Source: Acidobacteriota bacterium
GTDB taxonomy: Bacteria; Acidobacteriota; Terriglobia; Terriglobales; Acidobacteriaceae
Reading direction: 5' to 3'
DNA length: 56,783 nt
Assembly: GCA_021810625.1 (NCBI GenBank)
Contig: JAJZIJ010000017.1
Coordinates: 1 to 56,783 of the forward strand
Part shown: in pieces, positions 3,866 to 50,515 of the stretch
How the letters are laid out: every line of letters starts with the position of its first letter
How positions within the stretch are numbered: the stretch's first letter is position 1
The notes under the pieces: generated by a model
Database searches by the model: none
The model's input: the letters and a program-made list of their open reading frames with translations, nothing else
What the model was told of the DNA's origin: nothing
Program-made: the position numbers and the translations under genes

Positions 3866-3984
3866 GTAGGGCGCTCTCTCTCGATAGCCTTCGACCGTAG
3901 ACCGTATCCCATTCATGCTTCAATGTTGAAACGCGGGGGCTGCGGTGTCCGCGTGGACGCAGACAGTACACTGCCGATATTCGG

Positions 3985-43037: not shown

Positions 43038-45479
43038 ATGAAATCTTCTCCTCTCAATCCGTTCGATCATGCACTCGTTGCGCGTGGGCATACGTCTATG
43101 TACGTGATGCACAAATACTGGGCAAGAAAGCCACACAACGTGGTTGCCGAGTATATCAAGCACTATTCACGACCCGGCGAAATCGTTTTTGACCCATTCC
43201 TCGGTTCTGGAGTAACGGCGTTAGAGGCCATGAAGTTGGGTCGCAAGGCAGTCGGTACCGATCTTAGCCCAGTATCTATCTTCATCACCCGTGCGACCGG
43301 CAGCCCCGTCTCATTGGAACTTGTTAAGGAAAGCTTTGAAAAGATACGTAGTCTCATCTGGTCAGACATAGAAGCTCTTTACCGGACGACATGTAGGGCA
43401 TGCGGTGAGACCGCAACGCTAATTGCAAGTTGCTGGGATCGCGATACAAAAACATTGAAGGATGTCAGATACCATTGTGTACGATGCATGAAGCGGTATA
43501 TCGATGTGCCAAAATCGCAAGACCTTGATCTGTTAAAAGCAATAGAAGGGAGACCAATTCCGCACGGGCTCCCAGACATGGAGTTCCCAGAAGGCATTAC
43601 TTTCAACCAAGGAAGGCGAGAAGCAGGTCCAAGATTTTCAAATCTTTTTACTCGCAGGAATCTTTTAGCGCTGTACACACTCTGGAATGCTATCCAGACT
43701 GAATCAGAGAAATCGACAAAAAGCATCCTCACCTTTGCCTTTACTAGCATGCTGCACTTGGCGAGCAAGATGACACCTGTGCGTCCCAGTCGCCCGTTCA
43801 GCTCATTTTGGGCAATAAACAGCTACTGGGTGCCTCCTGAATTCATGGAACAGAATGTCTGGGAATTATTCGATAGCGCCGTTCAAGGCAAACAAGGAAT
43901 TCTAAAGGGTAAGGAAGAAAGTAACGAGTCAATTCGTAATTGGGAACTTGCCAAGAAGTTCAATGACCTAGGAAAAAACGCAAATTGTCTACTTGGGAAT
44001 CTGAACGTATTGGAGCTAGACAAGCTGATACCAAACAACAGCATTGACTACGTATTCACAGATCCACCATACGGTGGATCTGTCCCATACGCGGAATTAA
44101 GCACGCTTTGGGCACTTTGGCTTGGCTTAAAAATGAATTTTGAAGACGAGATCACGATCAACGACGACAAAGATTTTGAATACTACCATAAGATGCTACT
44201 AGCGGCCTTCAAGCAAGTGTATAGGGTGCTGAAACCTGATCGGTATCTTACGGTTACATTCCATAGTACAGAAATTCGAGTCTGGAACTCAATCATCAAG
44301 GCTGTTGCATCTTCTGGCTTTGATTTAGAAAAAATCATCTACCAACCACCAGCCCGCGCTTCGGCAAAGGGATTGCTTGTTCCTTATGGTAGTGCTGTCG
44401 GAGACTACTATATTCGATTTCGGAAGCCAAAGACCCCTATTAGTTTTAGTTCTGGAGAAACAGTAAGCAGAATCGAGTACGAGCGTGCCGTGTTAACCGC
44501 AGCCAAGACTATTCTTGCTGAGAGGGGTGAGCCAACAGCGTACACATTTATTCTAAATGGCATAATTGTTCATCTAAAAAAAGCTGGTGCATTACTTTCT
44601 GGAACCAGAAGCCCAGAAAAAGTAATGAGGGACTATTTAGGGAAGGAGTTCGTTCTGATTGACGACCACGAGTCGAAAGGTAACGGTGGTCAAAGATGGT
44701 GGTTTAAGGATCCAGCATCCATCCCCTACCTTGATGTGGTTCCTCTCACGGAACGCCTTGAAACCGCCATTGTTGGCGTACTTTCTCGCATGGTTAAAGT
44801 CAGCTTTGATGATGTGCTACAAGAGATATTTATAAATTTTCCAAATGCTATGACACCCGAAACAGAAAGAGTATCTACAATATTAGAGGAATATGCTAAG
44901 CAAACTTCTGATGGAATGTGGACCCTAAAACCAATAGTCAAGGTGAGAGAAGGCGAGCACACGACGATGATTGGAATGCTTGCTGAGTTGGGACGGTCAG
45001 AAAAGTACTCAATACAAATTGGTCTCCGGGAACAATCCGAGAACTATCGAGGTAAAAAACTAAAGCACTTCAATTCGGGTAAGGTTCCACTGCCGACATC
45101 TGTCACCAAGACCAACATAGATCGCATTCGGCAGATCGATCTGATATGGGCGACAAAAGAGACAATCACCGCCATCTTTGAAGTGGAGAATACCACTGCT
45201 ATTACTGAGGCACTTGTACGCGGGTCAAATTTAACGGTGCCAAATATTGATCGATTCGTTGTGATACCCAAAGAGCGTGAACGACTACTATTCCGGAAAT
45301 TACAGGAGCCGATGTTTGCAGAGAAGGTGCAACGAGATGGTTGGAAGTTTATATACTACAGTGAGTTGGAAAAAGCTTTGTCCAAAAAACGAACAAGGCC
45401 CGCCCTCGATCTCTTGCGTTCGATTACACAAACCCCTACAAATAAAGTGCCGGATCAACAGACTGAGCTTTTCGATTAG
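43038..45479 (+). CDS. DNA methyltransferase fused to a PD-(D/E)xK-like C-terminal domain
   Basis: This 813-residue protein starts like DUF1156-type DNA methyltransferases (HKYWARKPHNVVAEYI). SAM motif I is FDPFLGSGVTALEAM (51-65) and the N6-adenine/N4-cytosine catalytic motif DPPY is at 342-345. Between them a four-Cys zinc ribbon (C119, C122, C147, C150) is inserted. After about residue 470 a second part ends in a nuclease-like domain: HTTMIGMLAELGRSEKYSIQIG, IDLIWATKE and FEVENTT (E715-x-E717), then a region resembling IVxPxxRxxxxxxxxRPxF. The gene is AT-rich and stands alone, without a separate restriction or specificity subunit. It may be a single-protein restriction-modification or other defence factor; the target sequence is unknown. 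Confidence 0.82.
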   Translation: MKSSPLNPFDHALVARGHTSMYVMHKYWARKPHNVVAEYIKHYSRPGEIVFDPFLGSGVTALEAMKLGRKAVGTDLSPVSIFITRATGSPVSLELVKESFEKIRSLIWSDIEALYRTTCRACGETATLIASCWDRDTKTLKDVRYHCVRCMKRYIDVPKSQDLDLLKAIEGRPIPHGLPDMEFPEGITFNQGRREAGPRFSNLFTRRNLLALYTLWNAIQTESEKSTKSILTFAFTSMLHLASKMTPVRPSRPFSSFWAINSYWVPPEFMEQNVWELFDSAVQGKQGILKGKEESNESIRNWELAKKFNDLGKNANCLLGNLNVLELDKLIPNNSIDYVFTDPPYGGSVPYAELSTLWALWLGLKMNFEDEITINDDKDFEYYHKMLLAAFKQVYRVLKPDRYLTVTFHSTEIRVWNSIIKAVASSGFDLEKIIYQPPARASAKGLLVPYGSAVGDYYIRFRKPKTPISFSSGETVSRIEYERAVLTAAKTILAERGEPTAYTFILNGIIVHLKKAGALLSGTRSPEKVMRDYLGKEFVLIDDHESKGNGGQRWWFKDPASIPYLDVVPLTERLETAIVGVLSRMVKVSFDDVLQEIFINFPNAMTPETERVSTILEEYAKQTSDGMWTLKPIVKVREGEHTTMIGMLAELGRSEKYSIQIGLREQSENYRGKKLKHFNSGKVPLPTSVTKTNIDRIRQIDLIWATKETITAIFEVENTTAITEALVRGSNLTVPNIDRFVVIPKERERLLFRKLQEPMFAEKVQRDGWKFIYYSELEKALSKKRTRPALDLLRSITQTPTNKVPDQQTELFD

Positions 45480-45785: not shown

Positions 45786-47261
45786 CTATGCGTCCAGCTT
45801 TTTAGTCACCAGTTCATTGAGGAGTGCCGGGTTGGCCTGACCCTTTGATAGCCGCATCACCTGGCCGACGAAGAATGCGGCGACGGTCTTTTTGCCGCCA
45901 CGGTATTGCTCCACCTGCTTGGGGTTGGCGGCGATAATTTCGTCGATCATGGTTTCCAGCGCAGCGGGGTCACTGATCTGCTGTGGTTTTTCGCGTTCAT
46001 AGACGACGGGAAAATCCTCGCTTGTCTCAAAGCAGTGGTCGAAGAGTTGCTTGAGCATCTTGCTGGAGAGTTCGCCGCTTTCGGTCAGGTCGGCGGCCTG
46101 CGCGATGCCGCGCATGGAGATGGGCGATTGCGTCAGCTCCAACCCAGCGGCTTTGAGGCGGCCCATCAACTCCCCTTGCACTAAATTCGCCACGCGCTTG
46201 GGACTTTTCGTGGCCTTGGCCGCAGCCTCGAACTGATCGGCAAATTCTCGTGTTCCCGTGAGCACCTGCGCGTCCTGCTCGGTGATGTCATAGTCGGCGA
46301 CCATGCGCTTGCGCCGCGCTTCGGGCAGCTCCGGCATGTTGGCGCGAATCTCATGCTGCCATGCGGCAGAGACGACGAGTGGCGGCAAATCCGGCTCAGG
46401 AAAATAGCGGTAATCGTGCGCCTGCTCCTTGGAGCGCATGGAATACGTCCGCCCCTCGTTCGCATTCCACAGGCGCGTCTCCTGCTGCACGCGCCCGCCG
46501 GATTCGAGGACTTCAATCTGGCGTGCAATCTCATACTCCAGCGCTGCGCGAACAAAGCGGAAGCTGTTGACATTTTTTACTTCGGCCTTGGTGCCGAACT
46601 TCTCCGCGCCCTTCAAACGCACACTGACGTTGGCATCGCAACGCAGTGAACCTTCTTCCATATTGCAATCGCTGACGCTGGTGTAGAGCAGAATCTCCTT
46701 GAGTCGCGCCAGATACTCGTATGCCTCGTCCGCAGTGCGGATGTCGGGTTCGCTGACAATCTCCGCCAATGGCGTGCCGCAGCGGTTCAGGTCGAGATAG
46801 GTGCGTTCCCGCGAATCGGCAAAGCCATCGTGCATGCTTTTGCCTGCGTCCTCTTCCAGGTGCAGGCGCGTAATCCCGATGCGCTTGCTGCCGTTGGGTG
46901 TGGGGACGTCGATCCAGCCATGCTCGGCCAGCGGCTTGTCGAACTGCGAAATCTGGTAGCTCTTGGGCAGATCGGGATAGAAATAATTTTTGCGCGCGAA
47001 GATGGACGTCTCGCGCACCTGGCAGTTGATGGCCATTGCGGCGAGCGCGCCAAACTCCACGGCGCGACGGTTCAGCACGGGCAGCGCGCCGGGCAGTCCC
47101 AGGCAGACGGGACAGACCTGCGTGTTGGGCGCTGCGCCAAATCGCGATGAGCAGCCGCAGAAGGCTTTGGTTTCAGTCTGCAATTGGACGTGAACTTCCA
47201 GGCCGATCACCGGCTCATACTTGGCGAGAATCTCAGGGGAAAGCGCAGTTGTGGATGCCAT
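45786..47261 (-). CDS. gatB: Aspartyl/glutamyl-tRNA amidotransferase subunit B
   Basis: A 491-residue GatB of normal length: YEPVIGLEVHVQLQTETKAFC, the Zn-cluster Cys pairs (CGCSSRFG ... CPVCLGLPGALP), RKNYFYPDLPKSYQISQ, RLHLEEDAGK, DLNRCGTPLAEIVSEPD, and a C-terminal GatB_Yqey helical domain ending in VGQVMRLSKGQANP. With GatA and GatC it amidates Glu-tRNA(Gln) and/or Asp-tRNA(Asn). gatA and gatC are not adjacent. The start is 75 bp from the divergent RelA/SpoT-type gene. Confidence 0.97.
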   Translation of the reverse strand: MASTTALSPEILAKYEPVIGLEVHVQLQTETKAFCGCSSRFGAAPNTQVCPVCLGLPGALPVLNRRAVEFGALAAMAINCQVRETSIFARKNYFYPDLPKSYQISQFDKPLAEHGWIDVPTPNGSKRIGITRLHLEEDAGKSMHDGFADSRERTYLDLNRCGTPLAEIVSEPDIRTADEAYEYLARLKEILLYTSVSDCNMEEGSLRCDANVSVRLKGAEKFGTKAEVKNVNSFRFVRAALEYEIARQIEVLESGGRVQQETRLWNANEGRTYSMRSKEQAHDYRYFPEPDLPPLVVSAAWQHEIRANMPELPEARRKRMVADYDITEQDAQVLTGTREFADQFEAAAKATKSPKRVANLVQGELMGRLKAAGLELTQSPISMRGIAQAADLTESGELSSKMLKQLFDHCFETSEDFPVVYEREKPQQISDPAALETMIDEIIAANPKQVEQYRGGKKTVAAFFVGQVMRLSKGQANPALLNELVTKKLDA

Positions 47262-47336
47262 GCTGGCTTTAATTTTAGCAGCGATAAGGACAATTATACA
47301 CTTGATGAATCAATAGAGGAGGTCTACCGTTATGGT

Positions 47337-48395
47337 ATGGCGTGGACAACTCCGAACTATAGCCGAAAGCGCGTGAACGAGGCAGGGAAATATCTCACTA
47401 TAGCTCCTCTCTGGGGACGGGATAGGGATGCCGCGCTGGATGTTATCAACAACTGGCGGGCGGCGCACAGTTACCCTCTCCATGTTATAAAGATGAATCT
47501 GTTACAGAGGGCGCGGCGGTTGGATCCAAATGCCATTATCGCTCAACGTCAGAAGCGGCTCTCTTCCATCCGATCCAAACTTCTTAGCAAACCCGACATG
47601 AAACTGTCGCAAATGCAAGATATAGGAGGCTGTAGGGCTGTGATGGTCGATATGCGCCGCGTCACTCAGTTAGTTGACCTTTACCGGGATGCAAACGCGC
47701 GCAATCCCAATAGGCACACACTCGCAAAAGAGAAGAACTATATCGCGGAGCCTAAAACGGATGGATACCGAAGTTACCACTTCGTTTACAAATATAAGAG
47801 TAGAGCCGAGGAATACAAGATATTCAATGAGCAGAAAATTGAGATTCAGATTCGTTCGCGCTTGCAGCACGCATGGGCGACTGCTGTAGAAACCATTTCT
47901 ACTTTCACTGGCCAAGCCCTCAAATCAAGCATCGGGCACGACATCGGACATGACGATTGGTTACGATTCTTTGCTCTGATGTCGAGTTCAATAGCACTCC
48001 GGGAGAAGTGTCCCCCAGTTCCAGGAACCCCGGACGACAGGAAGGAACTCAAGCAAGAGTTGAAGGCTCTCAGCGACTCATTGCGAGTCCAGGAGGTATT
48101 GCAGGGATGGGGAACAGCCGTCCGACATGTTGTGACCAATGCGGCGAACGCTCACGCATTCCTGCTCGTGTTGGATCCAAACAAAAACACCCTGCAAGTG
48201 GTTCCTTATCTGAAGGATGAATTGGTAAGAGCGAATGATGACTATCTCATCGCAGAAAAGAGAACTGAAGTTGAAACAAATGTGCAGGCGGTTCTTGTTT
48301 CAGTTGACTCCATTGCCACACTAAAGAGTGCATATCCTAACTACTATCTCGACACAACCGCCTTTGTGAAGGCTTTACAAGAGGCGACTAAGTGA
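47337..48395 (+). CDS. RelA/SpoT-synthetase-domain protein with extra C-terminal domain
   Basis: ATG 47337 is placed 14 bases after AGAGGAGG; the longer frame back to 47184 runs through antisense gatB. The 352-residue protein has the alarmone-synthetase nucleotidyltransferase core: R/K at 79-86, D95 in MQDIGGCRAVM, the G-loop TDGYRSYHFVYKY at 141-153, and E169 in EIQIRSRLQHAWATAVE. It lacks the HD hydrolase, TGS and ACT domains of long RelA/SpoT. About 150 C-terminal residues form an unassigned domain (AHAFLLVLDPNKNTLQVVPY...). It could make (p)ppGpp or, like toxSAS proteins, modify nucleotides or tRNA. It is AT-rich and coupled to a tiny downstream ORF. Confidence 0.82.
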   Translation: MAWTTPNYSRKRVNEAGKYLTIAPLWGRDRDAALDVINNWRAAHSYPLHVIKMNLLQRARRLDPNAIIAQRQKRLSSIRSKLLSKPDMKLSQMQDIGGCRAVMVDMRRVTQLVDLYRDANARNPNRHTLAKEKNYIAEPKTDGYRSYHFVYKYKSRAEEYKIFNEQKIEIQIRSRLQHAWATAVETISTFTGQALKSSIGHDIGHDDWLRFFALMSSSIALREKCPPVPGTPDDRKELKQELKALSDSLRVQEVLQGWGTAVRHVVTNAANAHAFLLVLDPNKNTLQVVPYLKDELVRANDDYLIAEKRTEVETNVQAVLVSVDSIATLKSAYPNYYLDTTAFVKALQEATK

Positions 48396-48529
48396 GCAAA
48401 AGCACACTGGAATACGATAGGTTCAATGCAGCAATGGACACTATTCTCCGCGCCGCTCCTAAAACTGTAAAAGCCAAAACTAGTTTTCCTATTTTGAACG
48501 TGGCGGCAGCGGCACTTTCACTGGCTTAG
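48392..48529 (+). CDS. Small ORF (45 aa) coupled to the RelA/SpoT-type gene, possibly truncated
   Basis: GTG at 48392 overlaps the preceding stop (GTGA). The product begins MSKSTLEYDRFNAAMDTILR and continues APKTVKAKTSF, resembling the N-termini of small (about 60-residue) proteins with the pattern YDRFxxAMxxxLxVxxxxxKxK. After about residue 32 the sequence becomes Ala/Leu-rich and stops, so the gene may have lost its original 3' end to a rearrangement. It is a candidate antitoxin or partner of the RelA/SpoT-type protein; this is inference from position only. Confidence 0.45.
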   Translation: MSKSTLEYDRFNAAMDTILRAAPKTVKAKTSFPILNVAAAALSLA

Positions 48530-48653
48530 GCTGGACGTAGTTGATTGGCACTGAAGGCGTGAATTTGCGTGAACCACTGGACATAAAATCTTCCTCTTCA
48601 ACATCACCACGTTTGCGTAACTTTTCAATAAGGATTTTTTTACTCAACGTCAT
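48489..48653 (-). CDS. Hypothetical 54-aa ORF, doubtful
   Basis: A minus-strand ORF starting at ATG 48653 encodes a Lys/Arg-rich, Pro-ending product (MTLSKKILIEKLRKRGDVEE...KVPLPPRSK). It overlaps the end of the plus-strand 45-aa ORF by 41 bases, so at most one of the two ends is probably functional. No strong ribosome-binding site is visible. Composition looks more protein-like than chance, hence its listing. Confidence 0.25.
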   Translation of the reverse strand: MTLSKKILIEKLRKRGDVEEEDFMSSGSRKFTPSVPINYVQPKPVKVPLPPRSK

Positions 48654-48661
48654 CGGAATGC

Positions 48662-48697
48662 CTGGTGCCCCATTCAAGCCTTGCTTTTGGCTTGAGT
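48662..48697. repeat. Palindromic repeat, GTGCCCCATTCAAGCC hairpin
   Basis: CCCCATTCAAGCC is followed after an 8-base loop by GGCTTGAGTGGGG, 12 of 13 positions pairing. It begins with GGTGCCCCA, the reverse of the TGGGGCACC tail found on the other palindromes in this window. Confidence 0.55.
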
Positions 48698-48810
48698 GGG
48701 GGAGAATCCAGACGGTTCCGGCATTGTCATCGCAACCCGCACCCTCGGCACCCTTCGCTCCGCGCAAAATCCGCCTCTTAGAAATCTGCCCAACCCTGCG
48801 TTTTGAAGGG

Positions 48811-48868
48811 GCGGGACTTTAGTCCCGCCGTTAGCCCTGACATCGCCATCCGGCTTTAGCCGCTGAGG
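48811..48868. repeat. Two GGCTTTAGCC-type palindromes
   Basis: GCGGGACTTTAGTCCCGC lies at 48811-48828 and CGGCTTTAGCCG, followed by CTGAGGG, at 48851-48868. They are variants of the GGGCTTCAGCCC family clustered at 54.4-54.65 kb. The rest of the 48530-48952 gap holds one other hairpin (48662-48697) and no clear gene. Confidence 0.55.
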
Positions 48869-48952
48869 GAATCCTTAGCTCTTATGCAGAGCTTCCTCGT
48901 CTAAATTTCTAGCTGAATTATTTCTAGCTGAATTTCGGCTGCACCGCGTGTT

Positions 48953-49864
48953 TCACCTGCGGCGGTAGACAATCTTCAGGTGTTCACTTTCGAGCGCCTT
49001 CTGCGCCTGGGCGCGAGCATGGTCGGCCCAAGGGCCAGCGGGGTCGAGCCGCGTGTAATAGACCCAGTGCCAGAGCGCCCGGCGCGACTCCCCCTGACGC
49101 TCATAGGCCAGCGCCAGATTGTAATGCGCGTCGCCATAATCGGGCACCAGATGAATCGCCTGTTTGTAGGCGTCGATGGCCTCCGGTAGGCGCTTCATTT
49201 CATCCAGCACATTGCCCAGATCGAAGAAGGCCAGCGCGTAGCGCGGATCGGCCTCGGTGGCGCGGCGATACATCTCCTCGGCGCGGGCATACTGGCGCAG
49301 GTTGTAATACATGGTGCCGAGATTGATGCAGGCGGGCGCATGATTCGGCTGGAGTTCGAGAATGTGATGGTATATCTCCATGATCTGCTTGACGGCTTGT
49401 TTTACAACCTGCCTGCGCGTGCCGCGCTCGTCCTCGCGTCGCACAGCCTCCATGAACAGTCCGGCGATATACGCATCGCGGCTGCGCTGGCTGATTCCCA
49501 TGTGGGTCACGCTGCACATGGGCCGCTGTACATGATTTTCAAAATCGAACAGGAGCTGACGAGAAATAGGATCGACAACGGTACCCGCATGGCGGAAGAC
49601 CACGCGGGAGCCAGTGGTGACGGGGGAGGATTCCTGTAATGGGTTTGCCATGCCGGAGACACGCCGCATGGCTGCCACCGAAGCATGAATGCTCGATGCC
49701 CGGATGCGCCGGGAAGAAAGATCGCGCACCGTGCGTACCTGAGAGAGATGCTGGAAGGTGTAGGTCTCCAACGCATCGACAAGGCCGACGCGCTCCCACC
49801 CGCTCAATTGGCGAGCGGTGATGTGCAGGATGCGAAGAACGTCTTGACGACTATATAGAGTCAC
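48953..49864 (-). CDS. MerR-like HTH plus TPR-repeat protein
   Basis: The 303-residue protein opens with a MerR-type helix-turn-helix (YSRQDVLRILHITARQLSGWERVGLV at about 4-29, in two helices) and a linker. At about 165-295 it carries three to four tetratricopeptide repeats (ACINLGTMYYNLRQYARAEEMYRRA, AFFDLGNVLDEMKRLPEAIDAYKQA, AHYNLALAYERQGESRRAL). DNA-binding plus TPR suggests a transcription factor controlled by protein contact. I do not know a characterised orthologue. A basic tail (HLKIVYRRR) ends it. Confidence 0.8.
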   Translation of the reverse strand: MTLYSRQDVLRILHITARQLSGWERVGLVDALETYTFQHLSQVRTVRDLSSRRIRASSIHASVAAMRRVSGMANPLQESSPVTTGSRVVFRHAGTVVDPISRQLLFDFENHVQRPMCSVTHMGISQRSRDAYIAGLFMEAVRREDERGTRRQVVKQAVKQIMEIYHHILELQPNHAPACINLGTMYYNLRQYARAEEMYRRATEADPRYALAFFDLGNVLDEMKRLPEAIDAYKQAIHLVPDYGDAHYNLALAYERQGESRRALWHWVYYTRLDPAGPWADHARAQAQKALESEHLKIVYRRR

Positions 49865-49973
49865 AGTCCTGAGCGCGATATTTCCACCTACTATCGCTCA
49901 TTATGCGGATTTTTCGCGTCCGCTACAAGGGAAATTCCAGATTTCCTGAGGAAAATCCGTCCAAAACCGAAAA

Positions 49974-50007
49974 AAACAGGTGAAACCGGGAATAAATTGA
50001 CCTGTTT
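49974..50007 (-). terminator. Rho-independent terminator of the GyrI-like gene
   Basis: On the minus strand AAACAGGT (50007-50000) pairs with ACCTGTTT (49981-49974) across an 18-base loop, followed by a further run of T. It starts at the stop codon of the gene at 50007-50453. Confidence 0.6.
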
Positions 50008-50453
50008 CATTTCATTCCGACATAGACTTCGACCGCCATCGGCCCCCAATGAACCTCGAAATCGCAAATGTAGCTGCGCGCCAACGTGGAAGTCCAGACG
50101 TGCTCCCACGCTGAGATCAGGGCATCTGGCTGTTCTCCGCGCGCTTCAATCACGGCATATTGGGCGGCGGGTATGTTGGCCACCACCAGCCCCTCTGGAG
50201 TATCCTCCACCGCCGCCGCAGTGGCCGGAATTTCATACCCAAGCACGAACGTGTACTCGCCGGTATGGTCGCTGTCGTACTCACAGTAGACCGCATACAC
50301 GGCATCGCTGACGCGCTCCAGGACATGTGCAGCAATATTTTCCTCACGGAAACGCTGCCACAGCCCGTAGATGGTATCGGGCTGCGCGTTCGATGCCCGA
50401 CAGGCGATGCCGAGGACGGTGAACGCGGGGCGGTAAATTTTCTCGTAATGCAT
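50007..50453 (-). CDS. GyrI-like / AraC effector-binding-domain protein
   Basis: This protein of 148 residues from ATG 50453 consists of one GyrI-like small-molecule-binding domain: FTVLGIACRASNAQPDTIYGLWQRF at the start, AVYCEYDSDHTGEYTFVLGYEI in the middle, then VVANIPAAQYAVIEARG and ending FEVHWGPMAVEVYVGMK. Stand-alone members bind or hydrolyse lipophilic cations or macrocycles, or inhibit gyrase in E. coli. There is no DNA-binding part. An in-frame TTG at 50462 is an alternative start. Confidence 0.85.
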   Translation of the reverse strand: MHYEKIYRPAFTVLGIACRASNAQPDTIYGLWQRFREENIAAHVLERVSDAVYAVYCEYDSDHTGEYTFVLGYEIPATAAAVEDTPEGLVVANIPAAQYAVIEARGEQPDALISAWEHVWTSTLARSYICDFEVHWGPMAVEVYVGMK

Positions 50454-50515
50454 GGTTAACAATTACCGTTGCAACATCTGGATTGTTCAGAACTATTCCA
50501 TGCTGAGTGTTTGCG

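What the first reader, a model, noticed from the sequence alone, without database searches (positions are those of the whole stretch)
47337..48529. RelA/SpoT-synthetase protein with unassigned C-terminal domain and coupled small ORF
The synthetase core is intact but the roughly 150-residue C-terminus is not TGS, ACT or HD. A 45-codon ORF overlaps its stop (GTGA). Fused or paired alarmone-synthetase toxins guard against phage, so this may be a new toxSAS-like unit; the truncated-looking small partner could mean decay or a minimal antitoxin.
Basis: partly seen in the sequence, partly recalled or inferred. Interest (0 to 1): 0.65.

Follow-up and report, generated by a model that had tools for sequence, protein, structure and literature searches.

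The report
Phage-defence toxin in a decayed transposon
The gene encodes a CapRel-type protein, a known kind of self-inhibited toxin that stops protein synthesis when a phage attacks, and it sits in the remains of a small transposon, while the tiny gene beside it is a broken piece of that transposon rather than an antitoxin.

Summary
In detail: an intact 352-codon RelA/SpoT-synthetase gene (47337-48395) whose stop overlaps a 45-codon ORF (GTGA). The C-terminus is not unassigned. Over its length the protein matches CapRel, the fused toxin-antitoxin phage sensor (PDB 7ztb, E 6e-38; structural Z 24.2 over 325 residues). ATP-site R71 and R100, G-loop Y144 and the YXXY self-inhibition motif (Y333, Y336) are kept; the residues that sense capsid in CapRelSJ46 differ.

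The small ORF is probably no antitoxin. Its first ~29 codons belong to a small-protein family that, in 27 of the 34 best loci examined, is convergent with an IS1595-type transposase, behind varied cargo genes. Its last ~16 codons are read-through antisense to a chromosomal ORF. A diverged IS1595-type terminal repeat lies at 47289-47314, where homology to a sister genome stops. Transposase and right end are gone. A second CapRel of this genome and one of a related genome sit in such elements with repeats, 8-bp duplications and the small ORF; a third, in another family, lacks the small ORF.

So: a new CapRel member left by a decayed passenger-gene transposon. Activity is untested.

The parts
47281..47288 (.). 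putative left target-site duplication copy (GCGATAAG); no second copy in the window
   Evidence: position just outside the terminal repeat; the 8-mer occurs once in the window; 9 of 10 delimited elements of this type show perfect 8-bp duplications
47289..47314 (+). left terminal inverted repeat of an IS1595-type element (cargo end), diverged
   Evidence: best hit of the whole 56.8-kb window, both strands, for a matrix built from transposase-side repeats of 11 other elements: 17.1 against 11.6 for the next; sister-genome homology ends at 47290; 5 of 200 simulated windows reach this score somewhere
47317..47322 (+). AGGAGG, possible ribosome-binding site, 14 nt before the ATG
   Evidence: read from sequence
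47337..48395 (+). CapRel-type fused toxin-antitoxin gene, 352 aa
47544..47882 (+). RelA_SpoT synthetase core (toxSYNTH; Pfam match, residues 70-182); R71, R100 and G-loop Y144 kept
48156..48302 (+). region aligned with the CapRel pseudo-zinc-finger sensor/antitoxin domain (residues 274-322; predicted strand-strand-helix-strand, no cysteines)
48333..48344 (+). YPNY = YXXY neutralisation motif (Y333, Y336)
   Evidence: motif defined in PMC9712102 (passages read)
48392..48478 (+). 5' remnant (about 29 codons) of the IS1595-associated small ORF
   Evidence: profile without the window member ranks this frame first of 1351 (E 0.001, next 0.05); pairwise 0 of 2000 shuffles against the L062 member
48479..48529 (+). 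read-through codons past the inferred deletion junction (about 48479-48488); antisense to the chromosomal small ORF
48489..48653 (-). chromosomal small ORF, homologous to a 60-aa ORF beside the same TPR gene in the sister genome
   Evidence: local alignment score 102, 0 of 5000 shuffles

Best explanation
47337-48395 is a CapRel-type fused toxin-antitoxin gene. Inferred mechanism, from the named family: the N-terminal toxSYNTH domain transfers pyrophosphate from ATP to tRNA and blocks translation. In the resting cell the C-terminal pseudo-zinc-finger domain folds back, and the YPNY motif plugs the ATP site between R71 and R100. A phage protein that binds the variable C-terminal domain opens the enzyme, and infection is restricted. 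Shown here: homology over nearly the full length, kept catalytic and self-inhibition residues, and matching predicted topology. The gene arrived as the passenger of an IS1595-type transposon inserted upstream of gatB. A later deletion (inferred) removed the transposase, the right terminal repeat and the 3' part of the element's small accessory ORF. The 45-codon ORF is that remnant plus read-through; it is not CapRel's antitoxin.
For: Matches over residues 7-347 to 7ztb/9erv, 1-350 to PDC-S33 and 6-350 to phrog_4773. Foldseek ranks 1-3 are all CapRel, E 1.4e-22 to 2.7e-22; VIA Z 24.2 against 10.8 for the best non-CapRel row. A77/R79/R116/Y155/V338/L339/A351/Y352/Y355 of CapRelSJ46 are identical in the window protein, A341 is S, and the sensing positions L280/L307 differ. 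Terminal repeat in the expected place and orientation, with the sister-genome break at the same base. Elements with repeat pairs and perfect 8-bp duplications carry CapRel in L067 (own genome, CAGAATCG), L068 (CAGGCTTG) and L146 (GGTAGCGA). Small-ORF family convergent with an IS1595 transposase in 27 of 34 distinct loci, these being the best-scoring ones fetched, against 0 of 39 control loci.
Against: No activity, toxicity or phage sensing can be tested here. The window's terminal repeat scores lower (17.1) than the opposite ends of the 10 delimited elements (19.1-33.7), and a score that high turns up somewhere in 5 of 200 simulated windows. No transposase match (E 0.1, whole window), right repeat or second duplication exists in the window. 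The sister contig on the gatB side runs only ~300 bases past the break, so the empty site was not seen end to end. PDC-S33 at E 1e-20 also rings in 3 of 14 control genomes (B. subtilis, C. glutamicum, L. lactis), so that profile alone is not specific at that level. The structure model is of middling confidence (pLDDT 66, 3 sequences). No promoter-like site was found on the + strand, so expression is uncertain.
Confidence: 0.87

Rival explanations
1. The 45-codon ORF is a separate minimal antitoxin or regulator of the RelA/SpoT toxin, making a two-gene unit.
For: GTGA overlap is typical of translational coupling. A related 45-aa ORF follows the second CapRel of the same genome, and a member follows the CapRel of G618.
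Against: The same ORF family follows AAA-ATPase, DUF3800 and unnamed cargo. 25 of 28 CapRel-type loci put to the profile lack it, including the IS1595-borne one in G341. The window copy has lost its 3' part, and CapRel already carries its antitoxin domain.
Confidence: 0.06
2. The protein is a housekeeping or stress small alarmone synthetase making (p)ppGpp rather than a tRNA-directed toxin.
For: It contains the common PF04607 core, and YjbM/RelQ- and RelP-type synthetases are the next structural matches. The PDC-S33 profile also rings in B. subtilis, C. glutamicum and L. lactis at 1e-20.
Against: The RelQ/RelP matches cover only residues ~27-227 (Z under 11), while CapRel covers 7-352 at Z 24. 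The self-inhibition motif and interface are kept. It was found in few genomes (19 of 396 of the phylum hit PDC-S33 at 1e-20, some of them partial or long Rel-type hits) and in mobile contexts.
Confidence: 0.07
3. The CapRel gene is intact but silent or inactive, a fossil of the decayed transposon.
For: The right half of the element is gone. No promoter-like site was found on the + strand in 47100-48960.
Against: The frame is intact, with every tested catalytic and self-inhibition residue kept except A341 to S.
Confidence: 0.2

Closest known systems
CapRelSJ46 (Salmonella phage SJ46; PDB 7ztb, 9erv; PMC9712102, outline and passages read; PMC11578894, listing only)
   Same: single-gene toxSYNTH plus pseudo-zinc-finger architecture, R79/R116/Y155, YXXY motif, interface residues A77/V338/L339/A351
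   Different: 31-33% identical; capsid-sensing residues L280 and L307 are T267 and T285 here; in a transposon remnant, not in a phage genome
CapRelEbc (Enterobacter chengduensis; PMC13423816, passages read)
   Same: same family and autoinhibition logic; the paper gives its C-terminal domain as only 47% identical to that of SJ46, so the sensor varies fast
   Different: its trigger is T7 Gp0.4 together with FtsZ; the window protein's trigger is unknown
IS1595-family insertion sequences with passenger genes (recalled: Siguier, Gagnevin, Chandler 2009, not seen in any call)
   Same: Zn_ribbon_IS1595 (L067, L068) and DDE_Tnp_IS1595 (L068) transposases, terminal inverted repeats, 8-bp target duplications in related elements
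   Different: the window element has lost its transposase and right end; cargo is CapRel plus a small ORF whose window and C13 members match no Pfam family
bicistronic toxSAS systems (FaRel2/ATfaRel2; PMC11782079 and PMC10565793, start of abstract in a listing; PhRel, passages of PMC9712102)
   Same: same toxin domain family
   Different: separate antitoxin gene there; fused antitoxin here

Membership tests
CapRel (fused toxSAS) | toxSYNTH core with ATP-coordinating arginines and G-loop tyrosine | tested here: met
   R71, R100, Y144 aligned to R79, R116, Y155; columns invariant in 7 of 7 rows
CapRel (fused toxSAS) | C-terminal pseudo-zinc-finger domain (three strands and a helix, no metal cysteines) with anchor helices in the same polypeptide | tested here: met
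   predicted E274-280, E285-291, H293-312, E317-322, helices 323-332 and 336-351 (moderate confidence); no cysteine in residues 270-352; aligned 7-352 with 7ztb
CapRel (fused toxSAS) | YXXY neutralisation motif | tested here: met
   Y333-P-N-Y336; two transposon-borne relatives vary: YPSF in L067, FPNY in L127/L146
CapRel (fused toxSAS) | tRNA pyrophosphorylation and toxicity of the N-terminal domain alone | not testable with these tools
   needs expression and assay
CapRel (fused toxSAS) | activation by a phage protein and protection from phage | not testable with these tools
   needs host and phage
IS1595-type passenger-gene transposon (window element) | terminal inverted repeat at the cargo end | tested here: met
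   47289-47314, best matrix hit of the window; same base as the sister-genome break; weaker than the repeats of delimited elements
IS1595-type passenger-gene transposon (window element) | IS1595 transposase | tested here: not met
   no tblastn match in the whole window at E 0.1; in 48301-50500 the best is E 0.18. Present in L068 and L146, shortened to 163 aa in L067
IS1595-type passenger-gene transposon (window element) | second terminal repeat and 8-bp target duplication | tested here: not met
   no right repeat among the 12 best matrix hits downstream of the gene in reach; GCGATAAG once only. The window holds a remnant, not a complete element
bicistronic toxin-antitoxin pair (toxin plus small ORF) | antitoxin gene conserved beside the toxin in homologues | tested here: not met
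   small-ORF profile at E 1: 25 of 28 CapRel-type loci lack it; the three that have it are the window and IS1595-type elements L067 and L146 (flanks of 0.7 to 5 kb, weaker and partial loci L015-L022, L024, L145 not put in)

The most novel reading that the evidence does not exclude
A lineage of IS1595-type mini-transposons in this bacterial family, with a conserved 45-70-aa protein encoded tail to tail with the transposase, spreads interchangeable single-gene or two-gene cargo, including phage-defence genes (CapRel in three elements plus this remnant; an AbiLi/PDC-M38-like pair in L072). The small protein would be a shared accessory factor of the element, for example a transposition regulator or a general neutraliser of cargo, and other unnamed cargo would be undiscovered defence genes.
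Probability: 0.35. Interest if true: 0.58.

Novelty: new member of a known kind. Interest (0 to 1): 0.42.

Why it matters
It turns a vague 'RelA/SpoT plus unknown domain' into a member of a named family of phage sensors with a testable trigger. It also shows a route by which such immune genes can move: very small transposons, besides prophages and plasmids. If the small ORF's link with IS1595-type transposases holds, the cargo genes of these elements become a short list of candidate defence genes, and the small protein a handle for finding them.

Tried and rejected
Small ORF as CapRel antitoxin: rejected as unlikely. Direct search of the window's small ORF gave, outside its own genome, only weak hits (best E 0.06) and none in plasmids; the second CapRel's small ORF was the useful query, also without plasmid hits. 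Pfam gave nothing for either. PF23326, DUF4384 and pertussis S5 hits of the protein are below cut-off and taken as noise. IMG/VR gave no relative with a single-protein query. Search for transposase remnants and a right repeat in the window: none. Promoter scan: nothing on the + strand.

Results that weaken or limit the transposon story: seven of 34 small-ORF loci have no transposase within the fetched flank. Four of the seven were looked at more widely: L147 and L149 show repeat pairs, L148 one repeat of 17.7, L109 nothing above 9.8 in 17 kb. The other three (L125, L137, L140) were not extended. The 34 loci are the best-scoring ones that the tools returned, not a random draw, and the controls were not matched for transposon density. 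Most CapRel-type loci are not IS1595-borne: 4 of the 27 rows of the tree are. A single origin of IS1595-borne CapRel is neither shown nor excluded: window and L068 pair at 88/90, not starred; 3 changes needed, 86 of 500 shuffles as low. The search with A2 includes the window's own small ORF, so its hit there (E 2e-9) is circular; the independent test is. Pairwise support varies by member: 13 of 5000 shuffles for C13, 4 of 2000 for G618, 0 of 2000 for L062 and L064.

Searches for print (listings, partial library): IS1595 with CapRel/toxSAS/RelA (20 of 24 papers listed), and IS1595 with passenger, defence or cargo terms (20 of 214, 20 of 6,201, 15 of 58, 15 of 20). No listed paper showed both IS1595 and CapRel counts. 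In the VIA list the C-terminal part was tested almost only through the CapRel rows.

Full report
Observation. The ORF 47337-48395 encodes 352 aa, with PF04607 RelA_SpoT at residues 70-182 and no TGS, ACT or HD domain listed. GTG at 48392 overlaps the TGA, opening a 45-codon ORF to 48529. AGGAGG lies 14 nt before the ATG. The facts in the finding are correct.

What the protein is. It matches PADLOC candidate family PDC-S33 over residues 1-350 (E 6.3e-117), phrog_4773 over 6-350 (E 2e-93) and the CapRel crystal structures 7ztb and 9erv over 7-347 (E 6e-38). An AlphaFold2 model from three sequences (pLDDT 66, pTM 0.56) finds CapRel as its three best Foldseek matches (E 1.4e-22 to 2.7e-22) and as the two best VIA rows (Z 24.2, rmsd 5.4, 325 residues; Z 22.4), with RelQ-type synthetases next at 10.8 over residues 34-227. 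PMC9712102 (passages read; outline) gives R79, R116 and Y155 as active-site residues, and the YXXY motif Y352/Y355 with A77, V338, L339, A341 and A351 as self-inhibition residues. In the alignment of seven proteins (A1) the window protein has A69, R71, R100, Y144, V319, L320, S322, A332, Y333 and Y336 at these places; only A341 differs. L280 and L307, needed for capsid sensing in CapRelSJ46, are T267 and T285. The predicted C-terminal order strand 274-280, strand 285-291, helix 293-312, strand 317-322, then two helices agrees with the published pseudo-zinc-finger and its C-terminal anchor.

Relatives. PDC-S33 hits 19 of 396 genomes of the phylum at E 1e-20, some of them partial or in long Rel-type frames; the same search rings in 3 of 14 control genomes, so the profile alone is not specific at that level. 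tblastn finds 98 plasmid records (67 of them Escherichia) and 3 phage records. The nearest relatives are 51% (L068) and about 45% (L001, L002) identical.

The second gene. The own genome holds a second CapRel-type gene on contig C13 (38% identity), also followed by a 45-aa ORF. With that ORF as query, 9 of 396 genomes give 12 loci at E 0.01 (L055-L066). In 11 of these 12 an IS1595-type transposase lies within 1.5 kb. A profile search finds members in 112 of 300 genomes of the family. Its best-scoring matches gave 29 loci besides L055, of which 7 repeat earlier ones; 16 of the 22 new ones have the transposase. In total 27 of 34 distinct loci have it, and in 27 of those 27 the two genes are convergent. 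Controls: 0 of 11 TPR-gene loci, 0 of 19 chance matches and 0 of 9 own-genome repeat loci have such a transposase nearby. Of the seven loci without it, four were looked at more widely: two show repeat pairs (L147, L149), one a single repeat (L148), one nothing (L109). Pfam calls the L067 and L068 transposases Zn_ribbon_IS1595, with DDE_Tnp_IS1595 in L068.

Elements and cargo. Ten elements were delimited by terminal repeats at this stage, and 9 of the 10 have perfect 8-bp target duplications (the one in L078 lies inside a tandem repeat, and L079 has none). Cargo: CapRel (L067, L068), an AbiLi/PDC-M38-like AAA ATPase with a weak PDC-M38B-like partner (L072), DUF3800 (L079), and no family at E 0.001 for L074, L077, L078, L080, L081 and L082. 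Of ten further upstream genes scanned, five are DUF3800, one is CapRel (L127) and four have no hit; the remaining new loci were not scanned. The L127 element, read in L146, is complete: repeats at 3916 and 7291, duplication GGTAGCGA, 3376 bp, CapRel, small ORF and a transposase matching 323 of 324 residues of the L056 one at 70%. Its motif reads FPNY, and that of L067 YPSF, so the first or last tyrosine can vary.

The window element. A matrix from the transposase-side repeats of 11 elements has its best hit of the whole window at 47289-47314 (17.1, next 11.6), ending 22 nt before the CapRel ATG and reading inward. This is lower than the opposite ends of the ten delimited elements (19.1-33.7), and 5 of 200 simulated windows reach 17.1 somewhere, so position carries much of the weight. 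Independently, homology to the sister genome G396 upstream of gatB (92%) stops at 47290. On the other side, sister homology beside the TPR gene starts at 48959 by blastn, and its 60-aa antisense ORF is homologous to the one at 48489-48653 (score 102, 0 of 5000 shuffles). The small-ORF profile built without the window member ranks 48392-48526 first of 1351 frames, E 0.001, next 0.05. The match to the L062 member runs through codon 29 (0 of 2000 shuffles); against C13 it is 13 of 5000. In the L062 locus the small ORF, with a GTG start, also overlaps the cargo gene's end by four bases. The junction is therefore put at about 48479-48488, and codons 30-45 are read-through. No transposase match, right repeat or second duplication is present.

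Why the small ORF is probably not the antitoxin. Of 28 CapRel-type loci put to the profile, 25 have no member, the IS1595-borne L006 among them; L067, L146 and the window have it, and L146 was found through the small ORF. It follows varied other cargo genes, and CapRel has its antitoxin built in. What the intact small protein does is unknown to me; a role for the element as a whole is an inference from its fixed place beside the transposase.

Mechanism. Inferred from the family: autoinhibited tRNA pyrophosphokinase, opened by a phage protein that binds the variable C-terminal domain, then translation arrest. CapRelSJ46 senses capsid protein (PMC9712102) and CapRelEbc senses T7 Gp0.4 with FtsZ (PMC13423816, passages). 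The trigger here cannot be predicted, since the sensing surface differs.

Novelty. CapRel is known: PMC3153485 (passages) names the subgroup in Proteobacteria, Cyanobacteria and Actinobacteria, and PMC9712102 adds Spirochetes, Bacteroidetes and Firmicutes (passage). IS1595 elements with passenger genes are known (recalled). In the listings no paper showed both IS1595 and CapRel; the library is partial and most lists were cut. Most CapRel-type genes seen here are not IS1595-borne (4 of 27 tree rows are), and the tree does not settle how often such elements took up CapRel.

Noticed in passing
window 43038-45479 (+): An 813-aa N6/N4 DNA methylase-like protein (PF01555; PADLOC PglXI-like, E 7e-60) sits on the other side of gatB; its C-terminal ~360 residues match no Pfam family above cut-off.
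   Followed up: partly
L067 493-2471 (own genome, contig C13): A second CapRel in the same genome lies in a delimited IS1595-type element with a perfect 8-bp duplication and a transposase frame shortened to 163 aa.
   Followed up: yes
L072 3845-7044: An IS1595-type element carries an AbiLi/PDC-M38-like AAA ATPase and a 228-aa gene with a weak PDC-M38B match, plus a small ORF.
   Followed up: partly
L125, L130, L131, L133, L138, L079: DUF3800 is the commonest named cargo among the upstream genes scanned beside the small-ORF family (6 of 20 proteins given, two of those 20 being transposases).
   Followed up: no
L068 2267-2340, L072, L078, L080: The terminal repeats contain TTGACA, and a TATAAT-like hexamer follows at about 17 nt before the transposase start in these elements, so the repeat may carry the promoter (read by eye).
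   Followed up: no
window 48660-48708 and 48785-48897: Two short repeats with many copies in the own genome (45 DNA matches to 48440-48960 in all, itself included).
   Followed up: no
L084 2-503 (sister genome G396): The 60-aa ORF beside the TPR gene is followed by a DUF6338-like gene (E 0.001, below cut-off) that does not lie next to it in the window, so the deletion may have removed it too.
   Followed up: partly
L109 (G084:C15): One strong small-ORF member (L057) has neither an IS1595 transposase within its fetched flank nor a good terminal repeat in 17 kb.
   Followed up: partly
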